Below, one piece after another: positions 1,203 to 62,782 of a stretch of 64,000 nt of DNA (the stretch's first letter is position 1; every line of letters begins with the position of its first letter). The translations under genes and the position numbers were made by a program. Under the pieces are notes generated by a model. That model searched no databases. It had not been told where the DNA came from and worked only from the letters and a program-made list of their open reading frames with translations. This DNA is from Zoroaster sp. YZ-2022 (Eukaryota > Echinodermata > Asteroidea > Forcipulatida > Zoroasteridae): assembly GCA_029582265.1 (NCBI GenBank), contig CM055822.1:5139200-5203199 (forward strand). Reading direction: 5' to 3'.

Positions 1203-37308
<36,106 letters not shown>

Positions 37309-37499
37309 AGCTCACCAGAGCCTTGTCCTGCAGGCAGGTGCACTGCGAGACTGCGAAACTGCGAAACGCCCATTGCCCTGAATTAAAGATAACATGCTGC
37401 ATAACCAAATAGTATACATTGGTATATATCCCCACAATAACTTTGTAAGCCCAGAGTAAAAAATTATTATAAAGGAGTCCTGTGATTTTCTTTACTCCA

Positions 37500-37845
37500 T
37501 AATAATAATAATAATGTGTGGACTTATATAGCGCACGTATCCACCAACTGAGTGGTACTCAAGGCGCATATTATTACCCCTGCTCATAAGGCTCATAAAT
37601 CATTCCTGAAACCATCTCAGCTCCCTGGGGAGTATACAGCTCAATTGCTGCCATTACAGCGCATATAGGGCTAATCAACCAACTCTGCCCTCACAGGTAC
37701 CCATTTAACCCCTGGGTGGAGAGAAGCAATTATGGTTAAGTGTCTTGCTCAAGGACACAAGTGTCACGGCCGGGATTCGAACCCACATTCTGATGCTAAC
37801 ACCAGAACTTGAGTCCGGTAAGCTAGACCGCTCGGCCACGACACT
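37500..37845 (-). mobile_element. SINE type L, full copy downstream of the dikinase gene
   Basis: Reversed copy with an (AAT)n tail on the left and tRNA-like head TAGACCGCTCGGCCACGACA on the right. It is intergenic, about 190 bp after the dikinase stop. Confidence 0.92.
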
Positions 37846-41368: not shown

Positions 41369-44300
41369 ATGGATATCCCACCTGTTCATCACTGTTTTAT
41401 GGTAAGTATATCTGAATTTATCTTTTAAGGTTTAAAACAAATCACCATCAGGAAAAAGATTCTTAAACTCAACTCAACCTGTGTTTACTTTTGTATTCAG
41501 TATTTCGGGTGCTAGCCTAACTTAGTACTAACTTAGTAAAAACCGTCAAGGACGGATTCTGGTCGGGATATTTAGCCCTATTTCACATGTTGTTGTCAGC
41601 TATTTTTACTCGTTGTGGTCGTAGAAAAACCCTTGACGCGACCGGGGTGCTTGTGTCCTTGAGCAAGACACTTTACCAAAATTGCTTCTCTCCACCCAGG
41701 GGTAAATGGGTACCTGTACTCTGTAGCTGTGAGGGCAGAGTTGGTTGTTGTGTTTGACTAGCCCATATGCGCTAAAATGGCAGCAATTGAGCTGTATATA
41801 CTCCCCAGGGAGTTGAAATGGTTTCAGGAATGATTTATAAGCCTGATGAACAGGGGTAATAATAATATTAATATAATGCGCCTTGAGCACCAGTTTGGTG
41901 GATACGTGCGCTATATTATTATTATTGACGCCTTGAGATGTAGGCCTTGACGCCGAATCCAGCCCTTGACGCCGATTCCAGCCCTTGATGCCGATTCCAG
42001 CCCTTGATGCCGTGAATCCGCCCTTGACGCTTTTTAGTAGGACCGAGTATTTCCAGTAACATTAATGACTAACGTTAATGTTGTTTTTTGTAAAATTGTA
42101 TCTTGACTCAAAATATAACTAGACTTTGAGTGATATTATTGATGTTTATCACTAAGGCTTATGGCGTATGTATCATAGACTCGTGGTGTTTCCCCAATTT
42201 TTCTTCCGTTTTGTCATGTTTGTCATTTTTGTTAAATGAAATCTTGAGTGGTTATGAATGAATAGGAAGAGTTTTATTTTTATTTCATTTCAGCTGACTG
42301 CCCAAAATGAGAAGATGATTAAAAAACTCAAGAAAATGAAAAGGCGCAACGCAGACTTGGAGCTGGAGTTGAGAGTCATTACTGAAAATCTGAACAGGGA
42401 AAAACTGCTCAGAGAACACATACATAACAGAAGGCAAGATGCTTTTCCATATCCCCCACCCCTGGCAACATGAGCCACACCCTTGGCAACCTGAGCCACA
42501 CCCATGGCAACCTCGCACCTGAAGGTTCGAGCAGGGGATGTGCTGAACAGACTGATCTGGCCTGTCATTCAAACATCACAGATCGACCGTTACACTTTTC
42601 CATGACGAATGTTAGCTTATATCCACTTTGACGACTGCTATATCAACCATACATTTCCTTTGCTACATAGGCTTTTAATTATTATTAACCAGGCTGTGTG
42701 GATGGCAAGACCAAGTTCTGAGCATCGCTAAGGGTAGGTGGGTCTTAGGGTCAAATCCAGATTATATTAACCCTAACCCCCTAGGTATTCTGACTAGGAA
42801 CCTCCTGAATCCTCCAAAATCCATCAGTGCACTTTTGGAAACATGCCCTTATCTTCAAAATGCACCATGCATCTTTCATATTCAGCACTTATGGCCTGTA
42901 CTTCTTGTCAGGTAGTAATTTTGTCCCATTTGAAGAGGTGAAAGTACCAGTTTCCAACACTGCTGAATTTTTCCCAAAAAGTGCCTCTTGGAGGATTTTG
43001 CAGGATATGGGGTGGTTAGGGTTAAGTATTTATTTGGTGTATAAACCAAGCTTTTAAAGGGTGTATATTGCTTTGTGTTTGTGCCATATATAGCGTAGCA
43101 ACACACCAAACAGACTCTATTATGTACAATTAGAAAATACTTTATTAATTAGCTTCAACAACAGTGACTTGTTTTCAATTTTAACACAACCATCATTCTA
43201 AAAATTATTGCTCTGTCCTGCGGAGCTCCGGCTGTGCCCTCTGGCTTGCCATGAATTTCATTTTTGAAAAGACAAGGCAATATTTCCTTAGCAAAGAGCA
43301 CTCTCCGCATACAAAAATGAAAATTTGTTAAGGAAAATGTCATACGGCCTCAAGACAAAGACCTAAGGTATTAGACCTTTCTCACGGCATAGCCATCTTG
43401 TTTTTCTTCAACAAAGAACCACGTTACCAAACCGAGGCTGGTCCCTTTTCATGCATTGAGAGTTAGCGCTATAATCTTAATTTTGTACATGTATACAGGG
43501 AACCTGACAAAGATGGTCGCAGAAGAAACGTCCTTCCATTAAGTTCAAGGCATGCCCTGTGGCAGAGAACTGTGTGTTTTGTTGGTTTGTCACAGTAAAC
43601 TAAATAATATGTGTATGTTATTATATTTACAGTGTTGGAGTTCAGACTGATCCGCCAGGTTATAGACCCTACGTGAAGCCTCTACAGTTACTCACCCGAG
43701 CCAACAGGCAAGACAAGACAGACGATGACCAAAAGAAAGCAGACAGGTACACATATATTTCCAAATATGATTTTAGCACATGTATGGACATGTAGAAAGT
43801 CACAAACAGTCAACCAAAGGAAGTTTATGTAAAACTTGTAGCTTTGCATGGTGAAGAGGATAAGTAAGACTAATTGCAGAGACACCATGTGAAATTCTCT
43901 ATTGAGTAGTAATTAGTTCTGAAAAGAACTGGAGGTTACAACTCAACGTTTCGATTAGTATGCTCTGAGCATCTTCAAAGGAACTTTATGGAAAGTGGTC
44001 ACAAATATGGTACATAGCTGTTCATTAACCTTATCCCGCTAGGTATTCTGGCTAGGAGTGTCGTGGCCGAGCGGTCTAGCGCACCGAACTCAAGTTCTGG
44101 TGTTGCCAGCAGCAGGGTGTGGGTTCGAGCCCCGGTCGTGACACTTGTGTCCTTGAGCAAGGTACTTAACCATAATTGCTTCGTCCTTCGGATGGGACGT
44201 AAAGCCGTAGGTCCCGTGTGTTGTGTAATGCACGTAAAAAAGAATGCGCCTTGAGCACCACTTAGTTGGTGGATACGTGCGCTATATAAGTCCACACATT

Positions 44301-46887
44301 ATTATTATTATTAGGAACCTTCCTTAACCCTAACCACCTAGGTATTCTGGCTAGGAACCTTCCTGAATCCTCCAAAATCCATCAGTGCACTTTTGGAAAC
44401 ATGCCGCAGAGCTGCCAACATATCATCTTGAAAATGAGGAAGATTTAATTTTCTAATCAGAAAGACTCAATCGAAGCGAACGCAGCGAGCGAGCCAAGCG
44501 AGCGAGCCCAGCGAGCGAGCCCTTGCGGGTGGGGTCCAGGGGTTTTAGGCTTGCATATATTTTAAGTGAGTAAATTACCGTCAAATACGGAAGTCTTCCG
44601 CAGAATCCGGAAGAGTTGTCAGCTCTGCATGCCCTTATCTTCTTTTCGTTGATCTTTCATTTTCAGCACTTATGGCCTGTACTTCTTACCAGGTAGTGAT
44701 TTTGCCCCATTTGAAGAGGTGAAAGTACCAGTTTCCAAAGGTGCTGATTTAACCCCAAAAAAGTGCCCCTTGGAGGATTTTGCAGGATATGGGGTGGTTA
44801 GGGTTAAAGACACAATATTATGATGCAAGTATTTGGCAAGTCGCTAGTGTTATTTTCTTAAATTATTACCCACAGTTATGCTGGGCTCTGGTAGTTTGAA
44901 GTTGTACCTGCCCTTGTTATACAACACAATTATTCAAGGGACAATTGGCAAGATCAGAGCAGACTTTCAACAGGGCATGGAATAGGTGTCCTAGTTTAAG
45001 ATGAACACAGTGACTGGAAATTACTGGCTCTTTTATGCAGCAGCAATGGTAATATGACCTTATCATGTGAGGTATTATTTTTAGTCACTGAGTTAATCTG
45101 AAAAGACCACTCTGATTCCATGCCCTCTTGATCGTGATGATACTGTCCCTTTAAGTTTCAGTTTTTAAGTTTTTTTTTAAGTTTGCTTAAAATTTGTTTT
45201 AAATATACAAGACTTTTCAAAGAAAGGTGGATAATCTCTAAATAAGGAAATTTTGGTAACATTCTTTAATTTGTCCACTACTTTTAAATTGTCTTTGTTA
45301 ATTTTTTGTTTAATATTTAGGTTACTTTCAATGCACAACAAGCTGATGAAACGCTACGAGAAAGAACTCAAGACAAATACAACACACACAGAGACCATTG
45401 CAGCTTTAAATGTAAATCATTTCTTCCTGTTGGAATAGTAATTATTAATCTTTTCTTAACTTTTTATACCAAGTAAGTTTTACACAATAAAATTTTGGTA
45501 TTTCTCTGATTACCAGTATAGTACCATACATTAAATTTCTGGGTAATTACAGTGTCTTGCTCAACACAAGCCCTACCACAGTTTCTTCAACTTCATATTT
45601 TTTGTCTGCTTTACTGAATTCTACTCCTTGATTTTTGTTCAGCTGAGAATTCAAGACTTGGAGAGACAGCTAAACCGATCCAGAGAGCAGGTCCATCGTC
45701 TTGAAAGGTCAGTGACCCCAAGAGGTCATAGGAGACGTGGGAGCCGTTCAAGGAGTGTTTCTCCCTTCACAAATTCCCAAGGTAGATATATCTAACACTT
45801 GGGTGTCAATACCTTCTGCATTAATAAGGCTCACAGGGTCGATGTCAACTATACTATCCTGATTGGGAGATACGTTTGCCCTGATTGAAACCCTATTCTC
45901 CCAATGAGGATAACAATAGGCCCCGATCGGGAAAACCCTTGGGTGTCAATACCTTCTGCATTAATAAGGCTCACTGGGTCGATGTCAACTATACTATCTT
46001 GATTGGGAGATACTTTTACCCTGATTGAAACCCTATTCTCCCAATGAGGATACAATATACCCCAATTGGGAAACCCATGGGTACCAATAACACATTTTGT
46101 ATTAGACTCACTGGGTTGACGTTACGGCTTTAGGTCCCTATTTGTTTTAGCTAAATGTCTTTCAGGAAGTCTCACCCTCATGTGATGATTTAACCAGTTC
46201 GCGTCGGGAATAAAAAAGTTTTTCTGGGCCCCTGTGGCGGGTTTATTTTTCCCACACATACGTTAATGGAAGCTTCCACAGCGGGTGGCCGGCATTTCCG
46301 AGCATGTCACACAAATATTCCAGAGTTTCCTCTGGCGTGTTTAGATGCTCTCCGATCCGTGGTGCAAAATTTTTTTTTGTGTATACACGGCCTCCGACGC
46401 GAACTGGTTAACAAAAATGTTTCAGAGATATTTCATATAGATGTGTACAACATCTGAAGTATTTTTGTAATTTTCTATTCAGTTCAGCAATCAGAAGTGA
46501 AGCGATTGAAGAAAGAACGAGACCAGCTAGTCAAGGACAAGAAGAAACTCAAGAGAGAACTGCGGGGCCTTGACGAGGTAACACTGTCCTTAATATCTGA
46601 TCATGTTATATTTGTATTTAAAAGTTGTTTTCCATAAATATATGACATGCCGATTGCATTCTGATTTTAAACAACTGAATTCCATTTCATTAAACAATAT
46701 TTTGTATTTCTCTCAGGGCTTCTTTGAAGAAATTGAGGACCTGAAATATGCCCTCCAGCAGTCAGCCAAGTTGAACAAGGAGTACGAGAAGGCACTAAAA
46801 AGAATCTGTCATCAATTTGGCGTTCCCTACCCACTCATGAATAATGGTGGGTCCAGGAGTTCAGAAAACAAAACTGTCCCTAGATGA
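41369..46887 (+). CDS. CEP290 C-terminus-like coiled-coil protein (7 exons, 260 aa)
   Basis: Exons: 41369-41401, 42294-42433, 43633-43746, 45321-45411, 45643-45781, 46483-46577, 46717-46887 (TGA at 46885-46887). Phases agree throughout and total 783 nt. The protein starts MDIPPVHHCFM and then forms a charged heptad-like helix (about residues 12-58). A linker follows with VGVQTDPPGYRPYVKP, then a helix (about 105-160), a basic Arg/Ser stretch (RRRGSRSRSVSP) and a last helix with KRELRGLDEGFFEEIEDLKY (about 196-215). From memory, human CEP290 ends with a closely similar K-E-L-K-A-L-D plus F-F-E-E-I-E-D-L-K-Y segment. This suggests a centrosome or cilium role, but CEP290 is about 2,480 residues and this gene is only 260. 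A start upstream cannot be excluded, but the dikinase gene ends only 4 kb away and ATG 41369 has a canonical donor 33 nt later. Intron 2 has a GC donor. Confidence 0.85.
41645..41927 (+). mobile_element. SINE type L lacking its tRNA head
   Basis: It starts at CTTGTGTCCTTGAGCAAGAC and runs to (ATT)n. Intron 1 of the CEP290-like gene. Confidence 0.88.
41945..42035. repeat. 19-bp tandem repeat upstream of CEP290-like exon 2
   Basis: CCAGCCCTTGACGCCGATT recurs at 19-bp spacing, about five copies, the outer ones diverged. It directly follows a SINE tail in intron 1. Confidence 0.85.
42434..43632 (+). other. GC-AG intron in the CEP290-like gene
   Basis: Exon 2 must end in phase 2 to join exon 3 (AG + T gives Ser, then VGVQTD). 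The only junction that does so reads AGAAG|GCAAGA, a strong GC donor, with acceptor TTTACAG at 43626-43632. The first GT downstream of that point lies beyond an in-frame TGA at 42471-42473. Intron length is 1,199 bp. Confidence 0.8.
42771..43021. mobile_element. piggyBac-like TTAA MITE, copy 2
   Basis: TTAA (42767-42770) and TTAA (43022-43025) flank CCCTAACC...GGTTAGGG. Reverse orientation to copy 1. CEP290-like intron 2. Confidence 0.9.
44058..44315 (+). mobile_element. SINE type L, internally deleted, inserted in a MITE
   Basis: Complete tRNA-like head, shortened middle, and tail GGATACGTGCGCTATATAAG plus (ATT)n. It splits the MITE text CTGGCTAGGA|AGGAACCTTCC, and TAGGA flanks both sides as a target duplication. 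Confidence 0.9.
44328..44803. mobile_element. piggyBac-like TTAA MITE, copy 3, interrupted by a hAT-like element
   Basis: TTAA (44324-44327) and TTAA (44804-44807) flank CCCTAACCACC...GGTGGTTAGGG. A foreign 222-bp block at 44406-44627 interrupts it; without that block it aligns with copy 2. Confidence 0.9.
44406..44627. mobile_element. hAT-like MITE nested in the TTAA MITE
   Basis: Inverted ends CAGAGCTGCCAAC and GTTGTCAGCTCTG; flanking CATGCC duplicated at 44400-44405 and 44628-44633. The empty site GAAACATGCCCTTATC is intact in the sister copy at 42771. The inside has AGCGAGCGAGCC repeats. Confidence 0.88.
44938..45149. mobile_element. GGGGCAGTATCGTCAC palindromic MITE, copy 2
   Basis: Reversed relative to copy 1. 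CAACAGGGCATGGAATAGGT to CGTGATGATACTGTCCC. CEP290-like intron 3. Confidence 0.85.
45796..46125. repeat. 140-bp direct duplication in CEP290-like intron 5
   Basis: CTTGGGTGTCAATACCTTCT starts at 45798 and again at 45938, and the two units are about 93% alike by eye. A third, short, diverged start is at about 46076. The first copy begins 14 bp after the exon 5 donor. Confidence 0.88.
46194..46407. mobile_element. TTAA-flanked MITE with CCAGTTCGCGTCGG ends
   Basis: Perfect 14-bp inverted ends CCAGTTCGCGTCGG, with TTAA at 46190-46193 and 46408-46411. 214 bp, GC-richer than its surroundings, no transposase. CEP290-like intron 5, 75 bp before exon 6. Confidence 0.88.
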
Positions 46888-48522: not shown

Positions 48523-51500
48523 TTATGGTTCCAGCATTTCTCCCATCAGTGACCATCTGCTGCTATATGGTTTCACTGAACAATTAGAACTCGCTGATAA
48601 TCCTTCAGACCCCCAATCCACAGCTTGGTTTTCTAAATAATCTAAAATAAAATCAAACTTGTCCTTTCTTCCGTGTAACGTCCGTATAACATTTTCCAAG
48701 ACGTCAACGTCTTTTGCCCTGTGACAGCAGTCCAACGCAGCCACATCAATCGGATGTGCTTCCGTGTTGAATATATAACCACCGGCGTTGAGAACGCATT
48801 CTCCGTAGGGGGTTTTGATGACATCACCATGGTTACCAGTGTTATGTAAGAAACTGTCCCAGTCAAACAGAAGGTAAAGGTACTTAGTTGTTTCAGAGAG
48901 GAAGAAAGACTCCATGCGATTATCAAGCTTGTGGTTCCTTACATCTTTCACCTAGAGTAGGGATAATAATGGAAACATCAGAAGTGTATTACCAACACAA
49001 AATGTGCCCATCTTGTTTTAAACCAATCCACAGCATTGCCTCAGACAAGATGTTGGACCATTAATGGCATTGTATTCTGGCGATTGATGCACACGTAATT
49101 AATATGAAGCAGTGCATTCTGGGAGATTAGTCAGCGCACATATGGTAACTGAACCTTACACATAAATTGGTGACCAAGAGTTTGACAAAGTACAATTTTA
49201 TTTATTTATTTATATTTTTTTTGGGGGGGGGGGGATCAAGATTTTCTTAGGTCAGTCTGGGAAGCTCTTAAAAAGAACCAGAGCATTCTGGGAAATCAGC
49301 CGTCACACGTGATAACTATAGTCTTACACACGATCTTGTCACTAAGAATTTGGCAACACACAATTTTGTTCTTATTTTGTTCTTATTTTGGAGGATGGGG
49401 ATGAAAGTTTAGTTAGGTCAGTCTAAGATCGATAGTCAAGATGCACGTCTTCCATCCCCTTAACCATCAGCCATACTTACACTAGTATATCCACAAGGTG
49501 TCCAGGCACTTGTTTCTATCGATGTGAGAATGTCTCGTCCTACTTCCAGGAGATATGGATCCTTAGTCGCTTGGTATAAGTAAACCACACTCTCTATTAA
49601 TTCTGCAGAATGAAACCAAATTTTTCGTGTTTAAAACTCACTGACAATACTAACACTTTTTTGCGTTCCCCAAATCTCGATGTCAACTGGACATGTTCTA
49701 GGAGGTTGTTGGCTATGGTGGTCCCAGACTAGTGAACCATCTGTCCACTGAAATTCACTAACCTAAGTCCCAACAATTGAGAAGTTTCAGAGGGCTGAAC
49801 TGATTGCAAAGCAATAATTCAAGATGTAGTTTATAAGTAGACTGGTCCCCAGTCTTTATTCTCAAAAATAAAGACAGGCTCCTGGCGTACCATTCAAGGG
49901 ATTTCATTGGATACGTTGTGCTGAAGATCTGACATCACGCTTTGAGGCTCACGCTAGCTACCAACCAAGGTCAAAGTTGAATCTCCGAGAAACAAACATG
50001 GCGGCCGCACGCCGGTATATGGTGTCATTCACAAGCCTCAAAGCTTTTAAGACGCTGACTTACCGGTTCTTTTTCCTTGGTTTACGTAGTTCTGAGTATG
50101 TGCATGATATTGAGAACAATGGGAAAAAACATTACTAGTCTGCTGACATATAGAATCTCAGAAGTCTCCCACTAAACACAATTCTTAGACCTCATATTGT
50201 TACAAAAAGATTAGGGTCAGTGTGATTCTCTAGGGGGATTCTCTGGCTTAATCCTGACAATTTAACAGACTTTAGTAAAGTACTTGTTCATGAGTACAAG
50301 TCAGAGTACAGAAAAATGTACTTGAGTACACATACAAGTACAAATGCAAAACAGAAGTTGTTGGCCTTACGTTACAAACCTAGCAGGTTCTTTCTCAAAG
50401 GCAAAATGGACGATATACAAACATGCATGCACATGACTGGCTCTGGCAAAACCCTCAACTTGGACCCAATTTTCAAAAGTGAGATTTTGGTATAGTTTGA
50501 TTCTCTAGATTTTCCTGTATTTCTTCTTATATTTTTTTTCAGATAAGAAGATTTTGTTGTTATTCTGATTTCTACAAATCTGGTGTCAAATGAAAGAGGA
50601 AAATCTAGAGAATCAAACTATACCAAAATCTCACTTTTGAAAATTGGGTCCAAGTTTAGGGTTTTGCCAGAGCCAGTCACATATACATAAACACAATACA
50701 AGTAAATCTTTATAGATTTAACTAGTATCACACTGTTTGATATCAATTGTCACTTACCTGGTCTTAGTGGGTAGCCTTCTCTTGATATCAATTGTCACTT
50801 ACCTGGTCTTAGTGGGTAGCCTTCTCTTGATATCAATTGTCACTTACCTGGTCTTAGTGGGTAGCCTTCTCTTGATATCAATTGTCACTTACCTGGTCTT
50901 AGTGGGTAGCCTTCTCTTGATATCAATTGTCACTTACCTGGTCTTAGTGGGTAGCCTTCTCTTGATATCAATTGTCACTTACCTGGTCTTAGTGGGTAGC
51001 CTTCTCTTGATATCAATTGTCACTTACCTGGTCTTAGTGGGTAGCCTTCTCTTGATATCAATTGTCACTTACCTGGTCTTAGTGGGTAGCCTTCTCTTGA
51101 TATCAATTGTCACTTACCTGGTCTTAGTGGGTAGCCTTCTCTTGATATCAATTGTCACTTACCTGGTCTTAGTGGGTAGCCTTCTCTTGATATCAATTGT
51201 CACTTACCTGGTCTTAGTGGGTAGCCTTCTCTTGATATCAATTGTCACTTACCTGGTCTTAGTGGGTAGCCTTCTCTTGATATCAATTGTCACTTACCTG
51301 GTCTTAGTGGGTAGCCTTCTCTTTTATCAATGGCTTTGTTTGTTACAATGTTGAAGAATTCTGGAGTGAAGCCCAGCTGTCTCCATACTTGATGATAGTT
51401 GTGTAATGTTTTCATGGCTTCGTCTGTCTTGCCCAATAGGCTCTGTAACAAGTGGATCACAGTGACAGCTTAAAACATTCTCTGTACCATAATAATTATA

Positions 51501-54500
51501 ATATGGACTTATATATCACACATATTCACCAAACTGGTGCTCAAGGCGCATTACATTATTACCCCTGCTCATCAGGCGCATAAATCATTCCTGAAACCAT
51601 CTCAGCTCCCTGGGGAGTATACAGCTCAATTGCTGCCATTTCGGCACATATAGGGCTAATCAAACGCAACAACCAACTCTGCCCTCACAGGTACCCATTG
51701 ACTCCTGGGTGGAGAGAAACAATTATGGTAAAGTGTCTTGCTCACAAGCACACAAGCACCATGGTCGCAGCACAAATCGCAACACAAATCCGATATCTGA
51801 TGCCCGAAACCGCTCGGCCATGACACTCCACAACTGCAGTATAAGTTTTTCAAGTAAAAGTGTAGGTACTTGTACAAATACAACTAGATCAAGTTCACTG
51901 TACATGTACATGTACACGTTTGATTTATTCAAGTAAATGTGAGTACAAGTGTGAGTACAGGCAGTTTATACACGAATCCACTTCAAATGTAGAAAATGAT
52001 TGATGTAAATCTTCATCATGGTACTCAACATGATTTTTTTTTTTTTTTTTTTGTAGCCTGTCTACAATACTTATTACCAATCATTTGAAATGGTCAATGT
52101 AGGTGTACCTGTAAGCCTGGCCAGTATGCCTCAAGTGACTGGAATACAGGCATGCTGATTTGACCTTTCTTCATGTTGACCCACATATACCAGTCATCTC
52201 GCTTCATAAACTGTTTAGTTAACTTCTCGTACTCTGCAATGGGGAAAGACACCAATAGCGTTGATCAGGATAAGCCAAAGCTGGTCATTCTTAAATTACA
52301 ACACTAAAGTACATGTACCAATGTATTACTATTACAAAGGAAACGTTACTTTTTATTAAATATTCTACACAAAATATTCTTAAAATTTTACTTTGTTGTA
52401 ATATTAAATAATGTAAAATTAAGCTTGGAACATCCATCCTTTAATCCTAAAGCATTCTCAGTGCAACAAGATGTAACAGATGTTGCATCTTGTTGCCCTC
52501 AGCAGAGAACAAAAGAACCATTGTTCTAGCTGCTGGATCTTGTTGCATTGAGCAGCCTGCACACTTTTCTGTTGTTGCATTTTGTTGTATTCAGCAGGGT
52601 GTCTGTGAAATGCCTGGGTTAGGGTTAGAGCAAAGAAGAAGTTACCCCAAAACATGTCCAGTAGGTCCGTGTTGCCTAACAACAATCCACCTTTGACTAG
52701 ATACTCAAGCAGTGAATCCACACCAGCGCCTATCCCGGAGTCTAATGCTGTCCATTTCTTCGTCAAGACATCTATGTGGTTACCAAACTGTGGAAATCAA
52801 AGTAAGGCTTTTCATAGTAGAAAGTGGAAATCAAAGTACATGTTACAGATGACACAATAAGGAATTCTCTTTTTGAGATATACGTGCATGTGTGGTTCTG
52901 ATAGGCACCTGTGGTTTTACTCAGGGACATGAAGAACCAATCCGTAGATCTGTGGTTTTACCTAGGGACATGAAGAACCAATCCGTAGACCTGTGGTTTT
53001 ACCTAGGGACATGAAGAACCAATCCATAGACAAACACAGCCATTAAAATGATGTCAATAAACCTTAATCGTGGTAAAAATAAGTAATTAAATTTCAATTA
53101 TTAAATAAATCAGAAAATCCTTCAAATTGCAAAAATGTGAAAGAAAACAATTAGGTAAGATACTGTGATGTAGATTTTGCATGAAAAATAAAACACCAAA
53201 ATCAGGACTCGGATATTTGGAAAAAATTGAACAGTGTATGAGATGACTGGTGATATTTGATTGCTTTATATACACGATATAACCTGCAGGCAGTATTAGA
53301 CATTTTCCTTGATGGAGATTACTGATATAAGAGGCAAACAATTACACCCCCCCCCCCCAACTACTGACAGGTCATCTCCTCTACAGGGTCTCATCTAGCC
53401 TCTCATCATATTGCCAAGCCTACCTGTCCAGGATAGACCAGTGTCCATTATCTAGTCTGTCCTATAATTATGTAAGGCTGTTTGTAGAGTCTGATTAAAG
53501 CCAAACCTATTTGCGGTAAGTCCTTCTTAAAACAGGCATGAGAATGGGTTGTGTTAGAAAAAACTGGAAAATAGCGATTCACTATTAATGACCCAATCAA
53601 GCCGTAGGCTTGGCCCGAGTCGAAGGCGAGGCATGCCGGGGGTTTCAGGGGGCCGGGGCAACCCATACGTAATGCACTTGTCAGAAGAGGTGGCGGAGGA
53701 TGTGGACGGCCCTGCGCCTGAAGAACTTGTTGGCCCCGCTGATGAAGCCACTTGCACGACATAATTTGTCCTTCTTATCTTCACTAGATTTACATGTTCC
53801 GCTGTGGTAACATGAGCTTTTAGTGCACTTTTCCCGCGATTTCCATAGTTGATCAGTTTATTGCAAAGCGTGCACATCGACTTCCCTGGTATATCTACCT
53901 TTCTGGCGAACTCGCCGAGATTGCACTTACTTTATCGGCAATACCACTTTTACCAGGCAGTTTAATTTCCACATCTTCCTCTAACCAAGACCACTTCCAT
54001 TTTTCTTTGACACCTTTATCCGACTCCCGCATTTAATTGTTCTTCATTTCTATCCAAAATTCTCGGCATTTTGAAGTCGGATGCCTCTCGATATTTCACG
54101 ATAATTTTACTATAACTTTTTCTTTCACGTACACAAAGGCCAAAGCGTTAACACGATGGTCGCTCAATCAACAACAGCATTTCCTAACGCTGATTATAGG
54201 GATCGTTGATTGGAAAATTTTATGACGTTATGGAATACTTGATACCTAACGCGATCGTTGATTCGCTTAGTAAACTTCATCTCTGTAACAGCACTTCATC
54301 GCTCTGCGCACGCCGTGTAAATAGGATCGGACAAACGGGTTTATAAAACAGCTGGGAGCGCCTAAAAACAGAGCTACGGGCCGACTTTAAAAGTGCCGAT
54401 CTCGGGGCATTTCAGCAATGATATTTCCACAATTTCCCTAAAAAAAAATCACCCTAGACCACCTCTACCCCCCAAATTTTAAACCGGATTCACATTGAAC

Positions 54501-57500
54501 TCGGAGAGGACATATTTTGGCCTCCAAAAAGCGGGAAACCGCGGAACGGCGGGAAATTCTCATGCCTGTTAAAAATCTTGATGCTAGAAAAGCCCAAGAT
54601 TGCACCAGAGAAAATCTAATCCCAATCTCTCCTTAAAGCGGGACCCTAATATCTCCACACCGTAATGGCTTGCTCACTCACAATTGGTGCTTCACACTCA
54701 AAATGTGTCACCTGCTAGTTCATTTTGAACAAGCAGATTACAAATCCAAATGAAACCCTGCTCCTCTCTCCTCTGGAAAGGTATCAGATTCTTCAAATAC
54801 TTATAAAATCTTCTTCTTTTTTTTTTTAAGTGGTGGGAAACAGGAATAAATAAAACAAAAAAGCCCTACCAGGCCAATTTCAGATCGACACTGCCAAATA
54901 GAGTTGAGAGCCTTGATTGCTGTCTCCTCAAAGACCGGATCACCAGTTAGTCTGCTTAATGTGCCAAACTCAATGATATACGTCCCGACACATGCTGTAC
55001 AGGTGACTGGCGTCTCCCCTGCTGGTACTCCATGGGCAAGGTTGACTGTACCATAAGGCATCCCTGTAGGAGTGTTAAATGCTGTACAAGAAGGAGAAAC
55101 AACAAAAATAATTGTAAATTTTAATCTGCATTTTGGTTTTTAAACTTGATTTTTATACAAATTCCAAGACCCTTCCAAGTATGAATATGCATAATACTGA
55201 AATTTACCATATATTAATTAATTAATTATTCATTTGTAAATCAGTTTTTCTGGATGTAACCAAATCTTCTGTCATGTGATGGTACATGAACAGAGTAGAT
55301 ATTTTGCAAGCTTTTCAGCTGACAAGATGAGGCCAAGAAGCCTGATTTGATGACATCTTGAACCCACACAACAGTCAATAAGGAGTTATGTAATGGCTAA
55401 GATTGGAATATTGGGAACACAGTCAAAGTGCTTGATGTTTGGTATGATGATCTGGAAGCACAGCATTAGCCAGCAATACCTGTGGGTGTCTTTTGGACAC
55501 CCTGTTTGCTAAATGGACGCCCTGTTTGCTAAATGGACGCCCTGTTTGCTAAATGGACGCCCGGTTTGCTAAATGGATGCCCTGTTTGCTAAATGGATGC
55601 CCTGTTTGCTAAATGGATGCCCTGTTTGCTAAATGGACGCCCTGTTTGCTAAATGGACGCCCTGTTTGCTAAATGGACGCCCTGTTTGCTAAATGGACGC
55701 CCTGTTTGCTAAATGGATGCCCTGTTTGCTAAATGGACGCCCTGTTTGCTTACTGGACGCCCTGTTTGCTAAATGGATGCCCTGTTTGCTAAATGGATGC
55801 CTTGTTTGCTAAATGGACTCCCTGTTTGCTAAATGGACGCCCTGTTTGCTAAATGGACGCCCCGTTTGCTAAATGGACGCTCTGTTTGCTAAATGGACGC
55901 CCCGTTTGCTAAATGGACGCCCTGTTTGCTAAATGGATGCCCTGTTTGCTAAATGGACGCCCTGTTTGCTAAATGGATGCCCTGTTTGCTAAATGGACAC
56001 CCTGTTTGCTAAATGGACCCCTGTTTGCTAAATGGACGCCCTGTTTGCTAAATGGATGCCCTGTTTGCTAAATGGATGCCCTGTTTGCTAAATGGACGCC
56101 CTGTTTGCTAAATGGACGCCCGGTTTGCTAAATGGACGCCCGGTTTGCTAAATGGACGCCCTGTTTGCTAAATGGACGCCCTGTTTGCTAAATGGATGCC
56201 CTGTTTGCTAAATGGACGCCCTGTTTGCTAAATGGATGCCCTGTTTGCTAAATGGACGCCCTGTTTGCTAAATGGACGCCCCGTTTGCTAACTGGATGCC
56301 CTGTTTGCTAAATGGACGCCCTGTTTGCTAAATGGACCCCTATTTGCTAAATGGACGCCCTGTTTGCTAAATGGATGCCCTGTTTGCTAAATGGATGCCC
56401 TGTTTGCTAAATGGACGCCCTGTTTGCTAAATGGACGCCCGGTTTGCTAAATGGACGCCCGGTTTGCTAAATGGACGCCCTGTTTGCTAAATGGATGCCC
56501 TGTTTGCTTACTGGACGCCCTGTTTGCTAAATGGATGCCCTGTTTGCTAAATGGATGCCCTGTTTGCTAAATGGATGCCTTGTTTGCTAAATGGGCGCCC
56601 TGTTTGCTAAATGGACGCCCTGTTTGCTAAATGGACGCCCTGTTTGCTAAATGGACGCCCTGTTTGCTAAATGGACGCCCTGTTTGCTAAATGGACGCCC
56701 TGTTTGCTAAATGGACGCCCTGTTTGCTAAATGGACGCCCTGTTTGCTAAATGGATGCCCTGTTTGCTAACTGGATGCCCTGTTTGCTAAATGGACATCC
56801 TGTTTACTAAATGGATGCCCTGTTTGCTAAATGGATGCCCTGTTTGCTAAATGGACACCCTGTTTGCTAAATGGACACCCTGTTTGCTAAATGGACACCC
56901 TGTTTGCTAAATGGACACCCTGTTTGCTAAATGGACACCCTGTTTGCTAAATGCACGACCTGTTTGCTAACTGGATGCCCTGTTTGCTAAATGGACACCC
57001 TGTTTGCTAAATGGACCCGTTTGCTAAATGGGCACCCTGTTTGCTAAATGGACACCCTGTTTGCTAAATGGACACCCTGTTTGCTAAATGGACGCCCTGT
57101 TTGCTAAATGGATGCCCTGTTTGCTAAATGGACGCCCTGTTTGCTAAATGGACGCCCTGTTTGCTAAATGGATGCCCTGTTTGCTAAATGGACACCCTGT
57201 TTTATTTGTAATACACATGCAAATTCATTTTAAGTTAAACTTTTGGACACCCTGTTTTTCAAAGAACAACAAATTTGGACACCTTATTTCCAAATCCTAG
57301 CTTACATGTATAACAGAAGCATGAAGTGGCAAAGGTATTCAAACATTGAATCTTGATTTTCCATGTCTTTTGTAATGAATCTTTTACCATAAATAAACTC
57401 AGGCTTACTGCTATAAATATCACAAAATCCCCCATCCCCTTGGACATTCCATCCCATCTGCTGAGATAAGTATTCACACCTGGTAAGATTCGTCTAGCCA

Positions 57501-60500
57501 CTTTCTCAGCCATCCTTAGCAAGGGTCCCTCACAGGGCCAACCTGACTCCAGATCCACCCCCGCTCTCTGAGACAGCAGGTGGGCAGACAGAAGCCCTCC
57601 AATAACTGCAAGCAATTGGTGTACACATATAAAAAAAAAAATTTTTAAAGGATAACATAAGCATGCATACTGTGAAAGAAAACGTGTAAATTTACAGCAA
57701 AATGTAGGCAACTCTATTTCCAACAATTTGCTGTATTACAATTTTAAATAACAAGTGTGTTAAACTGATTTACACAATTTCTTTAAACGCTTAATTATGA
57801 AACTGCAGTACATTTCCGTATTTGTTTCACCCATTCTGATTCTCTTTTTCAGCTCACAAAGAATACGTCCAAACAAATATGGAAACATACTGCAGTTTCA
57901 TTATTAAGCATTTACAGAAATTGTGTAAATCAGTTTAACAACACTTGTTATGCAAAATTGTAATACAGCAAATTGTTGGAAATAGAGTTGCCTGCATTTT
58001 ACTGTAAATTTAAAAATTTTTTACAGTGCACGTTAAAAACATAACTAACACAAAATGGTAAATATGAAAAGGATCTTTTTTTTTTAAAAACAAGTAACTT
58101 ATCAACTTTATCAAGTGACAAACCCTACAAGCAATGATAAACATATGTCACCAAGGGGGCATTGTCCCTCGGGTGCCCCCACCCATATTCTAAATTCAGG
58201 TCCCTTCTAAAAACACAAGGGTACCTCCCAGAAAATCCTTGTTCCCCTCCCACATTCCCCCTACTAAAATGAACCCTTCATTAGCTGTTGCCCCATCCCC
58301 ACTTACCTCTTATGTTTGTTTCAAACACAGACACATTAATGTCTTCAGAAAAGTCTAGATGATTCTGCAGTAGCGAAGCTACCCTCCTGAATTCACTATA
58401 GTTACCCATAATAGCAAGGGTGTCCAATGCATCAATGAGAGTTAGAGAATAACTACAAGGAAACGTTTATAATTAAAGGCAAAATAAATCAGAAAAAAGA
58501 TCCAAAGCAGTGAGATTCTATGTTCTACATCAGACAGTTTTGGTTAAATCATAAAATAATAAAAAATGAGTAACACTAACAGTTTAATGTCATTTACTCA
58601 AAAACATTCTTACTGTGATGAAACCTTTTTGGGTTAGTTTTATATTTGTAGCAAATCAAGAAGGTGGAAATTAAAGTATGTTACTAAAAACCAATGTTTT
58701 ACATGTACCTTCCTTATCCTCATTAACCCTCCTACTCTAGCTGAACTTTAGCGGCAAGTAGCTATAGCGGTCAAAACCAGTCAACTAACTCTTTTAACTG
58801 TTGACCCAAATGTGCACACAGGGGCCTTTTTGACTGGTTTTGACCACCCTCAACAATATAATACAATGCTTTTACCAGTCAAAAATGGTCAACTCATATT
58901 TATTCTAAATGTGGGACTGACCTTCCCCATGAGTCTACACCATCGCATGTCAAAGGTCGAAGTTCATCATATGGGAAAGCATTATTCAGGTAGTTGTCAT
59001 AGCCGTGGTAGAACATAGCCCGAACCCTCTCTCTATAGAAAATAAAATGACATGGGAAAAGATGAAGAACATTGCAACCAGACTTTACCTTGTTGTTAAA
59101 TGTTATTCCCATTCATAAATGCCTGTATCGATTTCATTTTCAAAATGTTTTTAAAAAAATGTATTTTTTGTTGAATAAAGGCAAATAGAAATTGGCAAAT
59201 TCACGTTTTGGGGACACACGAAACATTTCCATCGTACATGAGTCAGGCGCGTGATGGCATGCCAATCTTCGTCACTCTGATTGGTTGAAATCTGCGTTGC
59301 GTGTCACACAAAACTGTCCGGTGAACAGCTGGCACATACGCGCTGATAAGCATGTCTATACCATCCGTTAATACACCCCCACGTGATTACGTTTTGTCTA
59401 AACTGCCTTGGGCATTTATGAATACCTAATAAAAAAATAATTAGGCCTAATAATATTACTCATTAGGTAGGTATGTGACAATCAGGCCATTGCATGCGTA
59501 GATCCGTGCACCCGGGCCGGGATCGCGCATTGACCAGCCGCTGTGTGGGGTGCGTCATCATTTTGCGTGTAGTAGCCATATTTTAGGAGTACACATAATA
59601 CACAGGTATTGATGACGTAGTACACATAACCCTCTGTATCATCGTCTTCGATTTTTTTCAATGCGGTTTGTAAAAGTAAAAAAAAATCCATCAAAGTTTC
59701 GGGCTGTCAAAGTCATCGATTCATTACCTTGTTTTTGATGGGTCGCAAAAATTTTTGTCAACGGTGAAAATTATCAAAATTGCCGAATTTCACACTGGCC
59801 GAACGCTTCATGTCACTGCCTTTCAAATCACCGTTTGGCACTAAAATCATACTAAAATGAGACTTATGAATGTCTACTATTGATTTATGGCAAGATTTAT
59901 GGCAAGATTTATGAAAATTATGCCTTAGAGACACCGATGATTAAGGATTTTGATGTGTGCGTTTTCTGTTCAAAATAAATGCATACGCGATTCAGAGGTC
60001 ACATGACCCAATTTTGGCAACGTGATTGGCCGATGCCAATGTTTACAAACACAGGTGGCCGTGTTTTTTTGGACAGTGTACTGCTTAACTTTCATATTTT
60101 ATTGTTTTATTTGTCATTTTGCATTATTTATGGATTTATTTTTATTTTTATTAGTTATTTAATTTACAGGCCCATGAAATCTCTGATCCGCGTGTTTTTT
60201 TCGGGGGGAAAATGCCCCCCCAAAAAAAATTCTTTTTTTTTTCTTTCTTTTTTTTGAGATTGAAGATCTAATTCACCAAAGACATAAACAAAATCAATTA
60301 AAATACTACAGATTTCACATTAGAGCATTTGGAACCAAACAAACATCAAGTAAAAACATTCATACCATCATGGCTTTGCTTTAGCAATGCGTGCTTAAAG
60401 TATTAGCTTGTCATAATTTTCCTCTTTTGGGGGGATTATGAGTTGCATGCCTGAAAGCAGATATTGACTTTTTTATGACTTTTATTTCAGGGGGGAAAAA

Positions 60501-62782
60501 ATCACAATCAATTATGTTAATTTTTTGGTTGTGGTTACAAAAGTTCATTTTATTTCCTGTAGTACACATCTGAAAATAAAGAATAATGCACACTTTTTTA
60601 AGTAGTCCACTAGTAGGGTTTTCAGTTCGTACGTGCTTGACCGAAGCCCTCCACACACACAGCGCATCGCCCGCAACAAAAAACATTTTTGCTACTTTTA
60701 CCTGTCGAAATCGTACATGTAATAGCTCATTGGAAAGCTTATAGTTTCAGCTATCCAACAATGTACATAAAATAGCAATCGGAAGTACGTGCGAAAGCCT
60801 AGGTTTTTATGAATGAACCACTCTCGTTCCGCCCAGCCTTTCGCGAAGTGTTCCGAGATCAGGTGCATTCGGCCCGTAAAATTTGCCGCGCTCTGCTGAG
60901 GGCATCCACTTCGGAGCTGTCTCCGCGCCCGAGTACATTGTAATTGACATGAAAACGGGTTTCCCTATTGAGTCAAAGGGCTCCTTTACATACCCATGCT
61001 TGCTCGATCTCCATAACTACTCTACAACCGAAGTTACGAAGAGATAAAAGTAAACACCGTTTTTTCGAGGTGAAATCTTCAAGTTGAAAGGTAAGAGCGG
61101 TGTCTGAATTAATTTTACACCTCTTTTCTATCATATGTGAAAGTTTTGAGCCGTAATTTTGTTTAGTTTTGAGCGGAGAGTGTATTTTTTATACCCTTTC
61201 AAAAGCTCTTAAGCGGGAAACGAGCACAAACACTGTGCGTGTGTATCACGGTGTGTGTAGGCTGATTCAACGGTTTTGTTGCCATTAGGGATGTACACAG
61301 TGTATGGACAGTCGCGCTTCATCGAATGCTGTATACTTGATTAAATAAAACAGGATTCCTCAAAAACTACTCGTCCGATTTTCTTGATTTAAAAACCATT
61401 AGATTTCTTTCATCAAAACCTTTAATTTGATATAAATATTGAGCATATTGGTTTAGGAATAATTTTTCAACTGAAAACCCTACCACTAGTAATTAAAATT
61501 TAAAAATAAGGAACTGTTGTTCCTATGAATGAAGACTTGAATAGGCAGATTCACGCAAGCCGCCGCTGGCGGCGCACTTCAAAAGCTAACTTTAGACATC
61601 GCGATTGTGACCGACTCACTCACATCCGGGTTCGCGCGAAAACGTTCCCCCTGGCTAGCTGTTTAATATGTCGTCGTAGCTCGCGTTGTCGCTGTGCGGA
61701 TTAAGCGTTAATCTGTAGACGCCATCTTAGATTCATTCATAAATTTTGCTTCGTTTCAATGCAAAATATCCGAACTCGGACGTTAGAAATATCGCCGTGT
61801 TTACGAATTCGCTTTTTCATCATTGTGCATGACGGAAATTCATCATCAATTTAGAGGTATTGGATGGTCTTCACGAAACTTGAAACCACGAAAAAAGGAT
61901 ACACCGTATCGTGGTGCCAACTGTAACGTTGGTGGAAAAACAGTGCAACTCGCGTAAAATGATCCGACAGCAAATTTTAAAAAAAATCACCTCTATCGGC
62001 GATTTGACTCGGTGAATCGGGGTGTCACGCACGCTTAATCGGGGTGTCACGCACGGGTGGATTTTGGTATTCAATGAGATTTTTTTGTTTAAAAGGGGTA
62101 CATGCTATATAGACACTTTGTTAGTACTACAAGGATACGTTGCAGGCAAATGCGGTCACAACTTTTCAAATGAAACTGGCTTCCAAAATGACCAAATATT
62201 TAAATCAACAAAAAATCGTAACTTTGCACAGGGTTAACCTATCATGACCATTGACCCCTCACTTTCTTTCTAATTTTTTGCTCTATCCAGTGATATGACA
62301 TTTAAAAGAATTGAAGCAACTTCAAATTTTCATGAATCTGCCTAATGAAGTGAAAACAGTTGCAAACTGTTGTGTATTACTTAGTAAGGCTTTCTTCACT
62401 GAAAGTTTTATTAAAATCTGTTGGATATTAAAAAAGTTATGACACTTTGTAGTTCAGAACTGCCCGAAAAGGTCACAACTTTTTCTTTGTTTTCTATTAT
62501 ATAAAGCAATAATACCAAATTAAGCCCGCAAATTAAATATTTAAAAGGTCATAACTTTTTTAATAATTAACCTATAACAAAGATATTTATACCATTTTAA
62601 TGGATTTTCTGAGCTCTTTCCAACAAATTATGCCACAATGTTTATTTTGAATTTTTTTGTCACAGGCCCTACCTGTATTGAAATATTTCATCATCTGTAA
62701 ATGTTGAATACACTGCTTTACATACACAAACTAAAGTCAAGACTTTCAATACAAAAACCACGTGAAGAAAATCATGAGCCAT
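48523..62782 (-). CDS. EDEM2: EDEM2, GH47 ER-degradation-enhancing mannosidase-like protein (10 exons, 555 aa)
   Basis: Exons on the minus strand in transcript order: 62782-62673, 59032-58922, 58452-58307, 57605-57480, 55081-54870, 52787-52646, 52233-52109, 51442-51298, 49602-49481, 48951-48523 (TAA). All are GT-AG with matching phases and total 1,668 nt. Residues 1-27 form a signal peptide ([17 protein letters not shown] core). The GH47 barrel follows: [46 protein letters not shown] (about 116-121), [33 protein letters not shown] (about 251), [22 protein letters not shown] (Glu about 373), [10 protein letters not shown], and [13 protein letters not shown] (about 477). These match human EDEM2 nearly block for block (578 aa there). 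The role is trimming mannose from misfolded glycoproteins for ER-associated degradation. The three acidic residues proposed as catalytic in GH47 appear kept. The end SLMGEMLEP resembles the human end, with no KDEL. Confidence 0.95.
50434..50679. repeat. Near-perfect long inverted repeat (hairpin) next to the splice-site array
   Basis: Left arm 50434-50515 begins TGACTGGCTCTGGCAAAACC. The right arm 50598-50679 is its near-perfect reverse complement, with about 80 nt between them. It lies in EDEM2 intron 8, 57 bp downstream (transcript sense) of the last 45-bp unit. Probably a fold-back MITE; the transcript would form a long hairpin. Confidence 0.88.
50737..51321 (-). repeat. EDEM2: 45-bp tandem array, 13 copies, each with an exon end and a 5' splice site
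   Basis: Period 45, thirteen units, identical as far as I can read. On the minus strand each unit is 25 nt of EDEM2 exon 8 end (AGAGAAGGCTACCCACTAAG then ACCAG) followed by GTAAGTGACAATTGATATCA. Every unit therefore carries CCAG|GTAAGT, a near-ideal donor. The unit that joins the exon body (51321-51277) supplies the real donor at 51297-51296. The motif ATTGATA occurs in the exon just before the first unit and again at the end of every unit, a microhomology that could have seeded the duplication. In frame, any downstream donor would read Pro-Gly-Lys-stop. The 205-residue plus-strand open frame over this array is an artefact of the period being a multiple of three. Confidence 0.95.
51298..51442 (-). 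CDS. EDEM2: EDEM2 exon 8, whose 3' end is the seed of the 45-bp array
   Basis: The exon encodes [15 protein letters not shown] through [14 protein letters not shown] sequence (read: [12 protein letters not shown]) and ends CCA-G|GTAAGT in phase 1. The split codon G|AA completed by exon 9 (49602) is the Glu of the GH47 R-P-E motif. The last 25 nt and the following 20 nt of intron are repeated downstream (see the 45-bp array). Confidence 0.93.
51489..51830 (-). mobile_element. SINE type L, decayed, between EDEM2 exons 7 and 8
   Basis: Reversed body (CTCAGCTCCCTGGGGAGTAT, CTCTGCCCTCACAGGTACCC). The head is decayed but still ends ACCGCTCGGCCATGACACTCC. Confidence 0.88.
52909..53031. repeat. 41-bp tandem repeat, 3 copies, in EDEM2 intron 5
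   Basis: CTGTGGTTTTACCTAGGGAC followed by ATGAAGAACCAATCCGTAGA recurs at 52909, 52950 and 52991. Confidence 0.88.
53533..54568 (-). mobile_element. hAT-like element carrying a broken BED-finger gene
   Basis: Inverted ends CAGGCATGAGAAT, flanked by TTAAAA on both sides (53527-53532 and 54569-54574). On its minus strand lie the two gene fragments described in the next entry. About 1.04 kb, EDEM2 intron 5. Confidence 0.85.
53554..54032 (-). pseudogene. BED-type zinc-finger transposase-like fragment
   Basis: ATG at 54032-54030 opens a frame reading [20 protein letters not shown] then a stop after about 46 residues. A second, shifted frame continues with [20 protein letters not shown] and [15 protein letters not shown], a C-x2-C ... 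H-x5-H finger. A Ser-rich tail follows, ending inside the element at 53554. The catalytic hAT domain is absent, and the frame break near 53900 may be a lost base or a small intron. It is a remnant of a transposase-derived gene rather than a host gene. Confidence 0.7.
55492..57204. repeat. 20-bp minisatellite, about 85 copies, in EDEM2 intron 4
   Basis: The unit is CCCTGTTTGCTAAATGGACG. Phase is kept over about 1.7 kb except for short deletions near 56018, 56338 and 57016. Units differ mostly at one CpG: GACGCCC, GATGCCC or GACACCC, that is CG, TG or CA. CA forms cluster at the right end (about 56860-57080). Remnants occur at 57245 and 57275. The array lies 411 bp downstream of exon 5's acceptor side and 276 bp from exon 4's donor, fully intronic. 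It is not a CRISPR array because there are no spacers. Confidence 0.97.
57665..58033. repeat. Long fold-back in EDEM2 intron 3
   Basis: Left arm about 57668-57835 and right arm about 57870-58030 are inverted and about 90% alike, for example GGCAACTCTATTTCCAACAA versus its inverse at 57972-57995. One arm end reads CACTGTAAAAA. It sits between exons 4 and 3. Confidence 0.88.
60615..61482. mobile_element. DNA transposon with 8-bp target duplication
   Basis: Ends AGGGTTTTCAGTT and AACTGAAAACCCTA are inverted. CCACTAGT occurs directly at 60607-60614 and 61483-61490. 868 bp, no coding sequence recognised. EDEM2 intron 1. Confidence 0.8.
61542..62344. mobile_element. Possible DNA element with TAGGCAGATTCA ends
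   Basis: TAGGCAGATTCACG at the left, CATGAATCTGCCTA at the right. Inside, AATCGGGGTGTCACGCACG is tandemly duplicated at 62014-62058. No clear target duplication, so the borders are uncertain. Confidence 0.5.
62673..62782 (-). CDS. EDEM2: EDEM2 exon 1: start codon and signal peptide
   Basis: The ATG is at 62782-62780 and the donor CAATACAG|GTAGGG ends at 62673. The 36 codons plus 2 nt end in phase 2. The missing third base comes from the first nucleotide of exon 2 (59032), giving Q-Y-R-E-R-V-R, equivalent to the H-Y-R-E-R-V-K of human EDEM2. The peptide has a hydrophobic core [17 protein letters not shown], as expected for ER entry. The phase match, the signal peptide and the upstream Met together decide the start. 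The intron to exon 2 is 3.6 kb and filled with transposable elements. Confidence 0.85.

What the first reader, a model, noticed from the sequence alone, without database searches (positions are those of the whole stretch)
50737..51321. A 5' splice site amplified 13 times: donor ladder in EDEM2
The 45-bp unit is not ordinary intronic satellite. It contains the last 25 nt of a conserved coding exon plus the first 20 nt of its intron, so thirteen consensus CCAG|GTAAGT donors stand in a row every 45 nt. U1 binding, donor choice and splicing fidelity at such a ladder are open questions. The units look identical, which implies very recent expansion or active homogenisation (or an assembly artefact).
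Basis: seen in the sequence. Interest (0 to 1): 0.88.

Follow-up and report, generated by a model that had tools for sequence, protein, structure and literature searches.

The report
Starfish gene with thirteen repeated splice sites
In a starfish gene, a short stretch across the end of an exon has been copied thirteen times in a row, giving a ladder of identical, perfect cut sites for RNA splicing of which only the first gives the normal protein; the kind is known from two human genes, but here it recurs in several unrelated genes of one genome and is spaced in a way that makes a natural test of how cells choose among equal sites.

Summary
Thirteen identical 45-bp units (585 bp, no mismatch) straddle the exon 8/intron 8 boundary of a complete 10-exon EDEM2 gene of a starfish (555 aa; 87.5% identical to Asterias amurensis EDEM2). 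Each unit carries CCAG|GTAAGT, a 9/9 match to U1 snRNA. Only the first donor (51298) gives the conserved protein; donors 2-13 meet an in-frame TGA and should trigger NMD. The query had one place in the 1.0-Gb assembly. Two donor patterns searched there gave 11 unit families; 5 start at a coding-exon end: EDEM2, a CATSPERG exon (13 units), an F5/8-type-C exon (20 units), a signal-peptide/CUB family (6-21 donor-like sites in six paralogues with 92-100% identical flanks) and an unnamed exon (3 donors). The kind is not new: human IFI6 (title seen, details recalled) and the ABCA7 VNTR are donor-bearing minisatellites, and among ABCA7's donors the first is mainly used. Distinctive are the 45-nt step (above the ~35-nt U1 footprint and the 40-nt limit for simultaneous occupancy), the perfect identity, and the recurrence in one genome. 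Most likely a young minisatellite whose first donor is used and whose others are intronic decoys. No RNA or read data were available.

The parts
50737..51321 (-). 13 identical 45-bp units, each 24 nt of exon 8 end (GAGAAGGCTACCCACTAAGACCAG) + 21 nt of intron 8 start (GTAAGTGACAATTGATATCAA)
   Evidence: one place in the genome
51298..51442 (-). EDEM2 exon 8 (145 nt) ending at donor 1, the only one of the 13 donors that gives the conserved protein
   Evidence: motif PLRPE across the junction uninterrupted in 118 of the 120 listed homologues
50758..51253 (-). last exonic-side base of donors 2-13 (51253, 51208, 51163, 51118, 51073, 51028, 50983, 50938, 50893, 50848, 50803, 50758); all CAG|GTAAGTGA
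49603..51297 (-). intron 8 from donor 1 (1695 nt)
49481..49602 (-). EDEM2 exon 9 (acceptor joined to donor 1 in the model)
48523..62782 (-). complete EDEM2 gene, 10 exons: 62673-62782, 58922-59032, 58307-58452, 57480-57605, 54870-55081, 52646-52787, 52109-52233, 51298-51442, 49481-49602, 48523-48951
   Evidence: Pfam PF01532 E 1.9e-107 on the 518-aa part without exon 1
50434..50679 (.). foldback (MITE-like) element in intron 8, 83-nt arms 99% complementary, 57 bp beyond the last unit; further copies in the genome

Best explanation
A minisatellite born by tandem duplication of a 45-bp segment spanning the exon 8 donor of a functional starfish EDEM2 gene, then expanded to 13 copies by slippage or unequal exchange (inferred). 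In the pre-mRNA the exon-proximal donor 1 (51298) is the productive one, chosen by exon definition with the exon 8 acceptor 145 nt upstream (inferred). Donors 2-13 lie in the intron as extra U1 snRNP sites that are bound and then lost, and are used at a low rate (inferred); any use retains (n-1)x45 nt and adds only G-K before a TGA (shown from sequence), and such RNA is removed by NMD (inferred). The ladder is thus mostly tolerated, at some cost in splicing fidelity.
For: Intact 555-aa ORF with 87.5% identity and no gap over 551 aa to A. amurensis EDEM2 when donor 1 joins 49602. Donors 2-13 all truncate at the same codon, with the stop 162-657 nt upstream of the last exon junction. Query single-copy in the genome. 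Donor 1 has the best U1 match among the 8 donors compared in this gene (9/9, -12.9 kcal/mol; the others 6-8 of 9; exon 1 donor not included). In the human ABCA7 donor VNTR (25-bp units) the 5'-most donor is canonical and one-unit retention is reported at about 2% (PMC5954066, section 21 read). Another ladder of this genome gives an F5/8 type C domain across the junction when its first donor is joined to the next exon, and a CATSPERG_C domain runs to the first donor of a third. In six CUB-family paralogues the ladder runs from 6 to 21 donor-like sites while flanks stay 92-100% identical, as expected of tolerated, fast-changing minisatellites.
Against: No transcript data. Work on duplicated 5' splice sites says the intron-proximal site is preferred when two sites more than 40 nt apart are both occupied (Eperon, as cited in the PMC5933811 discussion); 45-nt spacing exceeds that, which would favour donor 13. 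In human ER-alpha exon 1 two equally scored donors only 33 nt apart also use the intron-proximal one (PMC6002489 passage). ABCA7's spacing (25 nt) is below 40 nt, so the analogy may not carry over; and longer ABCA7 VNTRs go with lower expression and more exon 19 skipping, so a ladder need not be harmless.
Confidence: 0.7

Rival explanations
1. The intron-proximal rule holds: all 13 sites are occupied by U1 and distal (3'-most) donors are often chosen, so much of the EDEM2 pre-mRNA becomes a poison isoform and the array length tunes EDEM2 output.
For: Spacing 45 nt exceeds the U1 footprint (23 nt exon side + 12 nt intron side, PMC6002489 passage) and the 40-nt limit above which the downstream site was preferred (PMC5933811 discussion); 12 distal donors identical in sequence to donor 1; a stop after each. 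In ABCA7, longer VNTRs go with lower expression and more exon 19 skipping (PMC5954066).
Against: In ABCA7, one-unit retention itself was not affected by VNTR size (PMC5954066 section 21). A strong loss of EDEM2 function would be selected against; the ORF is intact. Predicted pairing does not single out a distal donor: 9-mer accessibility 0.0056 for donor 1, 0.0005-0.0036 for donors 2-13, 0.0001-0.13 for the 8 donors of the gene, donor 1 among them.
Confidence: 0.15
2. Traceless recursive splicing: each unit holds an AG|GT, so unit-to-unit splicing removes multiples of 45 nt and rebuilds the same CCAG|GTAAGT; mistakes at distal donors can be healed by a second splice.
For: CCAG|GTAAGT in every unit; tandem duplication of AGGT is an accepted route of intron gain (PMC3443670 passages; PMC4974935 abstract and results section). 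The unit's AG scores at the 73.8th percentile of 3467 minus-strand AGs and its score (-2.1) is within the leave-one-out range of the 9 real acceptors (-5.1 to 8.2).
Against: All 9 real acceptors lie at the 99th percentile or above on the same full matrix, which was built from them; only 7 pyrimidines in the 16 nt tested before the unit's site against 10-14 in the 8 acceptors compared; other AGs lie close upstream; the 45-nt step is very short for an animal intron (recalled).
Confidence: 0.06
3. Assembly artefact: one or a few units in the animal, multiplied or miscounted by the assembler.
For: Thirteen identical copies with no variant; no reads available.
Against: Chromosome-scale assembly (C7 is 46.5 Mb); other ladders in it show copy-to-copy variants; a collapse rather than expansion is the usual short-read error (recalled).
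Confidence: 0.07

Closest known systems
Human 6-16/IFI6 minisatellite (Turri, Cuin & Porter 1995, NAR 23:1854)
   Different: From memory: IFI6, 12-bp units, about 26 copies, first few donors used in frame. Here 45-bp units, all distal donors lead to a stop, different gene and phylum. The paper itself was not held.
Human ABCA7 intron 18 VNTR (PMC5954066; passages and section 21)
   Same: Tandem array starts at the exon donor; its first GT is the canonical donor; use of the next unit's donor retains one unit and frameshifts
   Different: 25-bp C-rich units that vary slightly, about 12-427 copies, array described as intronic; here 24-26 nt of coding exon is inside the unit, copies are identical, and spacing exceeds the U1 footprint
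[quoted passage not shown] review PMC3443670)
   Same: Tandem duplication across an exon-intron boundary; in the general model AGGT lies in the duplicated piece
   Different: In potato the boundary was an acceptor and a new spliced intron with RNA support arose; here it is a donor, 13 copies, no spliced product shown

Membership tests
Minisatellite providing multiple splice donors (IFI6/ABCA7 type) | array includes the authentic donor of a coding exon | tested here: met
   (gene model; no RNA)
Minisatellite providing multiple splice donors (IFI6/ABCA7 type) | a consensus donor in each unit | tested here: met
   13 of 13 CAG|GTAAGT
Minisatellite providing multiple splice donors (IFI6/ABCA7 type) | copy number varies between individuals | not testable with these tools
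   one assembly only; variation among paralogues seen for another ladder
Minisatellite providing multiple splice donors (IFI6/ABCA7 type) | distal donors seen in cDNA | not testable with these tools
   no RNA data
Recursive splice site ladder | polypyrimidine tract and acceptor-grade AG immediately before GTAAGT | tested here: inconclusive
   73.8th percentile against at least the 99th for the real acceptors; within their leave-one-out range
Intron gain by tandem duplication | AGGT inside the duplicated unit | tested here: met
Intron gain by tandem duplication | a new intron is spliced out | not testable with these tools
   no RNA data

The most novel reading that the evidence does not exclude
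Starfish genomes recurrently turn 5' splice sites into minisatellites, and ladders with steps of about 40 nt or more (EDEM2, CATSPERG, the C2 pair) load many U1 snRNPs at once, so that copy number acts as a fast-mutating dial: distal poison donors (or unit-to-unit recursive splicing that leaves no trace) set how much productive mRNA genes such as EDEM2 make.
Probability: 0.12. Interest if true: 0.82.

Novelty: new member of a known kind. Interest (0 to 1): 0.6.

Why it matters
How the intron-proximal donor is favoured when two comparable donors exist is called not known in PMC6002489 (citing Roca 2013; passage). This locus offers 13 donors embedded in identical 45-nt units, spaced so that simultaneous U1 binding is sterically possible, with an unmistakable readout per donor (each retained unit adds 45 nt). 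The two precedents have shorter steps (25 nt; 12 nt recalled). The six CUB-family paralogues with 6-21 donor-like sites give a copy-number series in one nucleus. It also suggests that expansion of a donor does not have to destroy a gene.

Tried and rejected
Ordinary intronic satellite: rejected, the unit includes coding exon and the donor of the gene model. Dispersed repeat: rejected, one place in the genome. Structure sequestering distal donors: the 10-bp palindrome TTGATATCAA pairs neighbouring units, but six copies fold not unusually well (49 of 200 shuffled units x6 as low or lower) and accessibilities lie within the range of the gene's other donors; all 13 are below the mean of the stretch (0.08). 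Plus-strand ORF of 210 aa across the array: a shortened version (5 repeats) had no Pfam match; read as a by-product of a stop-free unit whose length divides by 3. Rfam at gathering thresholds: one tRNA in the window.

Counts that were redone: the first junction count (93 of 120) used too narrow a pattern; with PLRPE it is 118 of 120, the others being P0016 (no such motif) and P0061 (extra residues at this place in a partial bird annotation). The 120 are the listed best of 4465 hits. The first isoform table used a wrong frame and exon 2 began one base too early; corrected.

Genome-wide donor-triple counts are matches, not arrays, and give no enrichment claim: CAGGTAAGT 81 against 36 for the backward control; AAGGTAAGT 31 against 98; AGGTGAGT 202 against 190, only the first places listed, those mostly satellites, none followed up. 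CAGGTGAGT, CAGGTAAGT at longer steps, and an EDEM2 paralogue search did not complete.

Papers opened for passages and not used: PMC8724738, PMC5861446, PMC6035042, PMC12783039.

Full report
What is there. On the minus strand of the window lies a complete EDEM2 gene model in 10 exons (62782 down to 48523). Nine exons were assembled from conserved reading frames with GT-AG borders and the signal-peptide exon was found at 62673-62782. The predicted protein has 555 aa; it is 87.5% identical without gaps over 551 aa to the Asterias amurensis protein P0001, 85.7% over 544 aa to Patiria miniata and 80.8% over 552 aa to Acanthaster planci (names). The 518-aa part without exon 1 matches Pfam GH47 at 1.9e-107. 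The assembly has 1.0 Gb in 616 contigs and the window is C7:5139200-5203199.

The array. At 50737-51321 stand 13 identical 45-bp units. Read in the sense direction a unit is GAGAAGGCTACCCACTAAGACCAG|GTAAGTGACAATTGATATCAA. The first 24 bases are the end of exon 8 (EGYPLRP-G), the last 21 the start of intron 8. Two bases (AA) are shared by the two ends of the segment, so the phase is uncertain by 2 bp and the first duplication may have used that 2-bp microhomology (inference). ATTGATA occurs on the exon side just before the segment and again near its intron end (read). The intron also holds a foldback element with 83-nt arms at 50434-50679, 57 bp beyond the array. Its arm has 43 further matches in the genome, some of them the two arms of one element; the tool scored 40 of 748 candidates, so this is a lower bound. 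Whether it helped to start the duplication is open.

What each donor would make. All 13 donors read CAG|GTAAGTGA, a 9/9 match to U1; the other seven donors compared in the gene match 6-8 of 9. Joining donor 1 to 49602 gives the conserved sequence RPELIES; PLRPE is uninterrupted in 118 of the 120 listed homologues. Joining any of donors 2-13 retains 45-540 nt and gives ...[10 protein letters not shown] and a stop, 337 residues into the 518-aa part (about 374 of 555), with the stop 162-657 nt upstream of the last exon junction, a standard NMD trigger (NMD itself is inferred).

One of several. The exon 8/array query has a single place in the genome. A search for three CAGGTAAGT in a row found seven distinct unit families, and one for AAGGTAAGT four more. 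I read the sequence upstream of all eleven. Five of the eleven begin at the end of a reading frame that follows an acceptor-like site. (1) EDEM2. (2) C6:7869754 (minus): a 183-nt exon with a CATSPERG C-terminal domain (PF22846, 1.7e-7, residues 3-60 of the 60 given), then 13 units at steps of 40-42 nt and a last step of 52, of which 8 are CAG|GTAAGT, 2 are other GT sites and 3 have lost the GT; the codon across the donor is followed by TAA on read-through (read). (3) C1:39728861-39729431 (minus): 20 units at steps of 29-31 nt, 18 CAG|GTAAGT, 1 CAG|GTAGGT, 1 CAG|ATAAGT; the exon joined to the next gives an F5/8 type C domain across the junction (PF22633 5.4e-9, residues 23-71; PF00754 1.7e-6, residues 11-72; junction at residue 35/36). 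(4) A family on C13 (29.4-30.7 Mb): 18-bp units after a signal-peptide-like exon whose phase fits a downstream exon with a CUB domain (PF00431 1.3e-12); the CUB match lies inside the downstream exon, so it does not test the junction. (5) C2:13524675 and C2:14423658: three donors of a 49-bp unit after an exon reading MAFINFLKKRKVSESVLQRLIDEK, no Pfam match. Six C13 paralogues have 6, 7, 20, 21, 9 and 8 donor-like sites (6, 7, 20, 17, 6 and 7 of them CAG|GTAAGT), while their 400-bp flanks are 92-100% identical pairwise. In the C1 gene the 30-bp unit is open in frame (GKYTQGVTHT); in the C13 family the unit has a stop.

The other six. L042 (C6:44453343) has an open frame of 125 codons before its first donor and L054 (C7:45986259) one of 46; a 30-aa and a 52-aa piece of these had no Pfam match, so they are undecided. 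L043, L045, L053 and L055 have at most 12-23 open codons. At L053 (C5:35238382) the opposite strand carries a serine carboxypeptidase exon (PF00450 9.7e-7), so on that gene's strand the array lies before the exon's acceptor and is no donor ladder. C17:24840548-24841108 repeats a 26-bp unit ending TTTATATTTCACAG|GTAAGT, which looks like an acceptor and a donor together. The backward-pattern controls gave 36 matches against 81 (CAGGTAAGT) and 98 against 31 (AAGGTAAGT), so no enrichment is claimed; the point is only that ladders at coding exons recur.

How it most likely works. Exon definition should favour donor 1: exon 8 is 145 nt with donor 1 and 685 nt with donor 13 (arithmetic). The best natural analogue, the ABCA7 VNTR, has its first GT as the canonical donor and retains one unit at about 2% (PMC5954066, section 21 and passages). 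Against this stands the finding that of two sites more than 40 nt apart the downstream one is preferred when both are occupied (PMC5933811 discussion), and two equal ER-alpha donors 33 nt apart also use the intron-proximal one (PMC6002489 passages). The EDEM2 step of 45 nt exceeds both 40 nt and the 35-nt U1 footprint; ABCA7's 25 nt does not. In ABCA7, length did not change unit retention, but longer VNTRs went with lower expression and more exon 19 skipping, which leaves room for a dosage effect. Extra U1 binding downstream of a donor can also strengthen exon definition (PMC5933811 abstract and discussion), which would let the decoys help donor 1. The locus thus sets two views of donor choice against each other, and RNA reads would settle it. 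Predicted RNA structure does not decide: the array folds not unusually well (49 of 200 shuffled units as low or lower) and donor accessibilities lie within the range of the gene's other donors, all below the mean of the stretch.

Unit-to-unit splicing would be traceless, because each unit ends its exonic part in CCAG|GTAAGT; but the internal acceptor is weak on the measure used (73.8th percentile of AGs against the 99th or above for real ones, the matrix being built from the latter; within their leave-one-out range).

Known or new. Minisatellites that supply several donors are known: human 6-16/IFI6 (title seen; gene name and 12-bp, 26-copy structure are recalled) and ABCA7. Searches of the paper library for exon-boundary minisatellites and repeated or duplicated donors (one search listed 10 of 440 papers) showed no other example that I recognised; most listed papers were not opened, and most subscription papers are not held there. 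I therefore file it as a new member of a known kind, with a step length and a recurrence within one genome that I did not find described in those listings.

Limits. One assembly, no reads, no RNA, no sister species. Several genome searches did not complete (see Tried and rejected).

Noticed in passing
L041 (G000:C6:7865200-7874600; array on the minus strand): Donor ladder of 13 units (mostly 40-nt steps) at the end of a CATSPERG C-terminal exon; 8 perfect donors, 3 units have lost the GT.
   Followed up: partly
L040 (G000:C1:39724500-39733800): Donor ladder of 20 units of 29-31 bp, 18 perfect CAG|GTAAGT, after an F5/8 type C exon; the 30-bp unit is open in frame.
   Followed up: partly
L044, L046-L050 (G000:C13, 29.4-30.7 Mb): Gene family with signal-peptide-like and CUB exons whose donor is repeated 6-21 times in 18-bp units; copy number varies while flanks stay 92-100% identical.
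   Followed up: partly
L051 and L052 (G000:C2:13524675 and C2:14423658): 49-bp unit with AAG|GTAAGT, three donors, at the end of an exon reading MAFINFLKKRKVSESVLQRLIDEK (no Pfam match), at two paralogous loci.
   Followed up: partly
L045 (G000:C17:24840548-24841108): 22 perfect donors in a 26-bp unit TTTATATTTCACAG|GTAAGT that looks like acceptor and donor together; at most 12 open codons upstream. A possible recursive-splicing ladder.
   Followed up: no
L055 (G000:C13:7893797-7895016): 29 units of 43 bp (one step of 50) with AAG|GTAAGT, at most 22 open codons upstream.
   Followed up: no
L042 (G000:C6:44453343-44453437): Three donors in a 43-bp unit after an open frame of 125 codons; a 30-aa piece had no Pfam match; coding status undecided.
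   Followed up: partly
L053 (G000:C5:35238382): 17-bp array just before the acceptor of a serine carboxypeptidase exon on the opposite strand.
   Followed up: partly
50434-50679: Foldback, MITE-like element with 83-nt arms in EDEM2 intron 8, with further copies in the genome.
   Followed up: partly
51477-51699: Dispersed repeat about 35 nt upstream of exon 8, with relatives at 9468-9587, 22236-22445, 37485-37705, 41723-41916 and 44234-44311.
   Followed up: no
55494-57202: 20-bp x 85.5 minisatellite in EDEM2 intron 4 (92% adjacent-copy identity), not touching an exon of the model.
   Followed up: no
35828-36926: 73-bp x 15 tandem array, 94% adjacent-copy identity.
   Followed up: no
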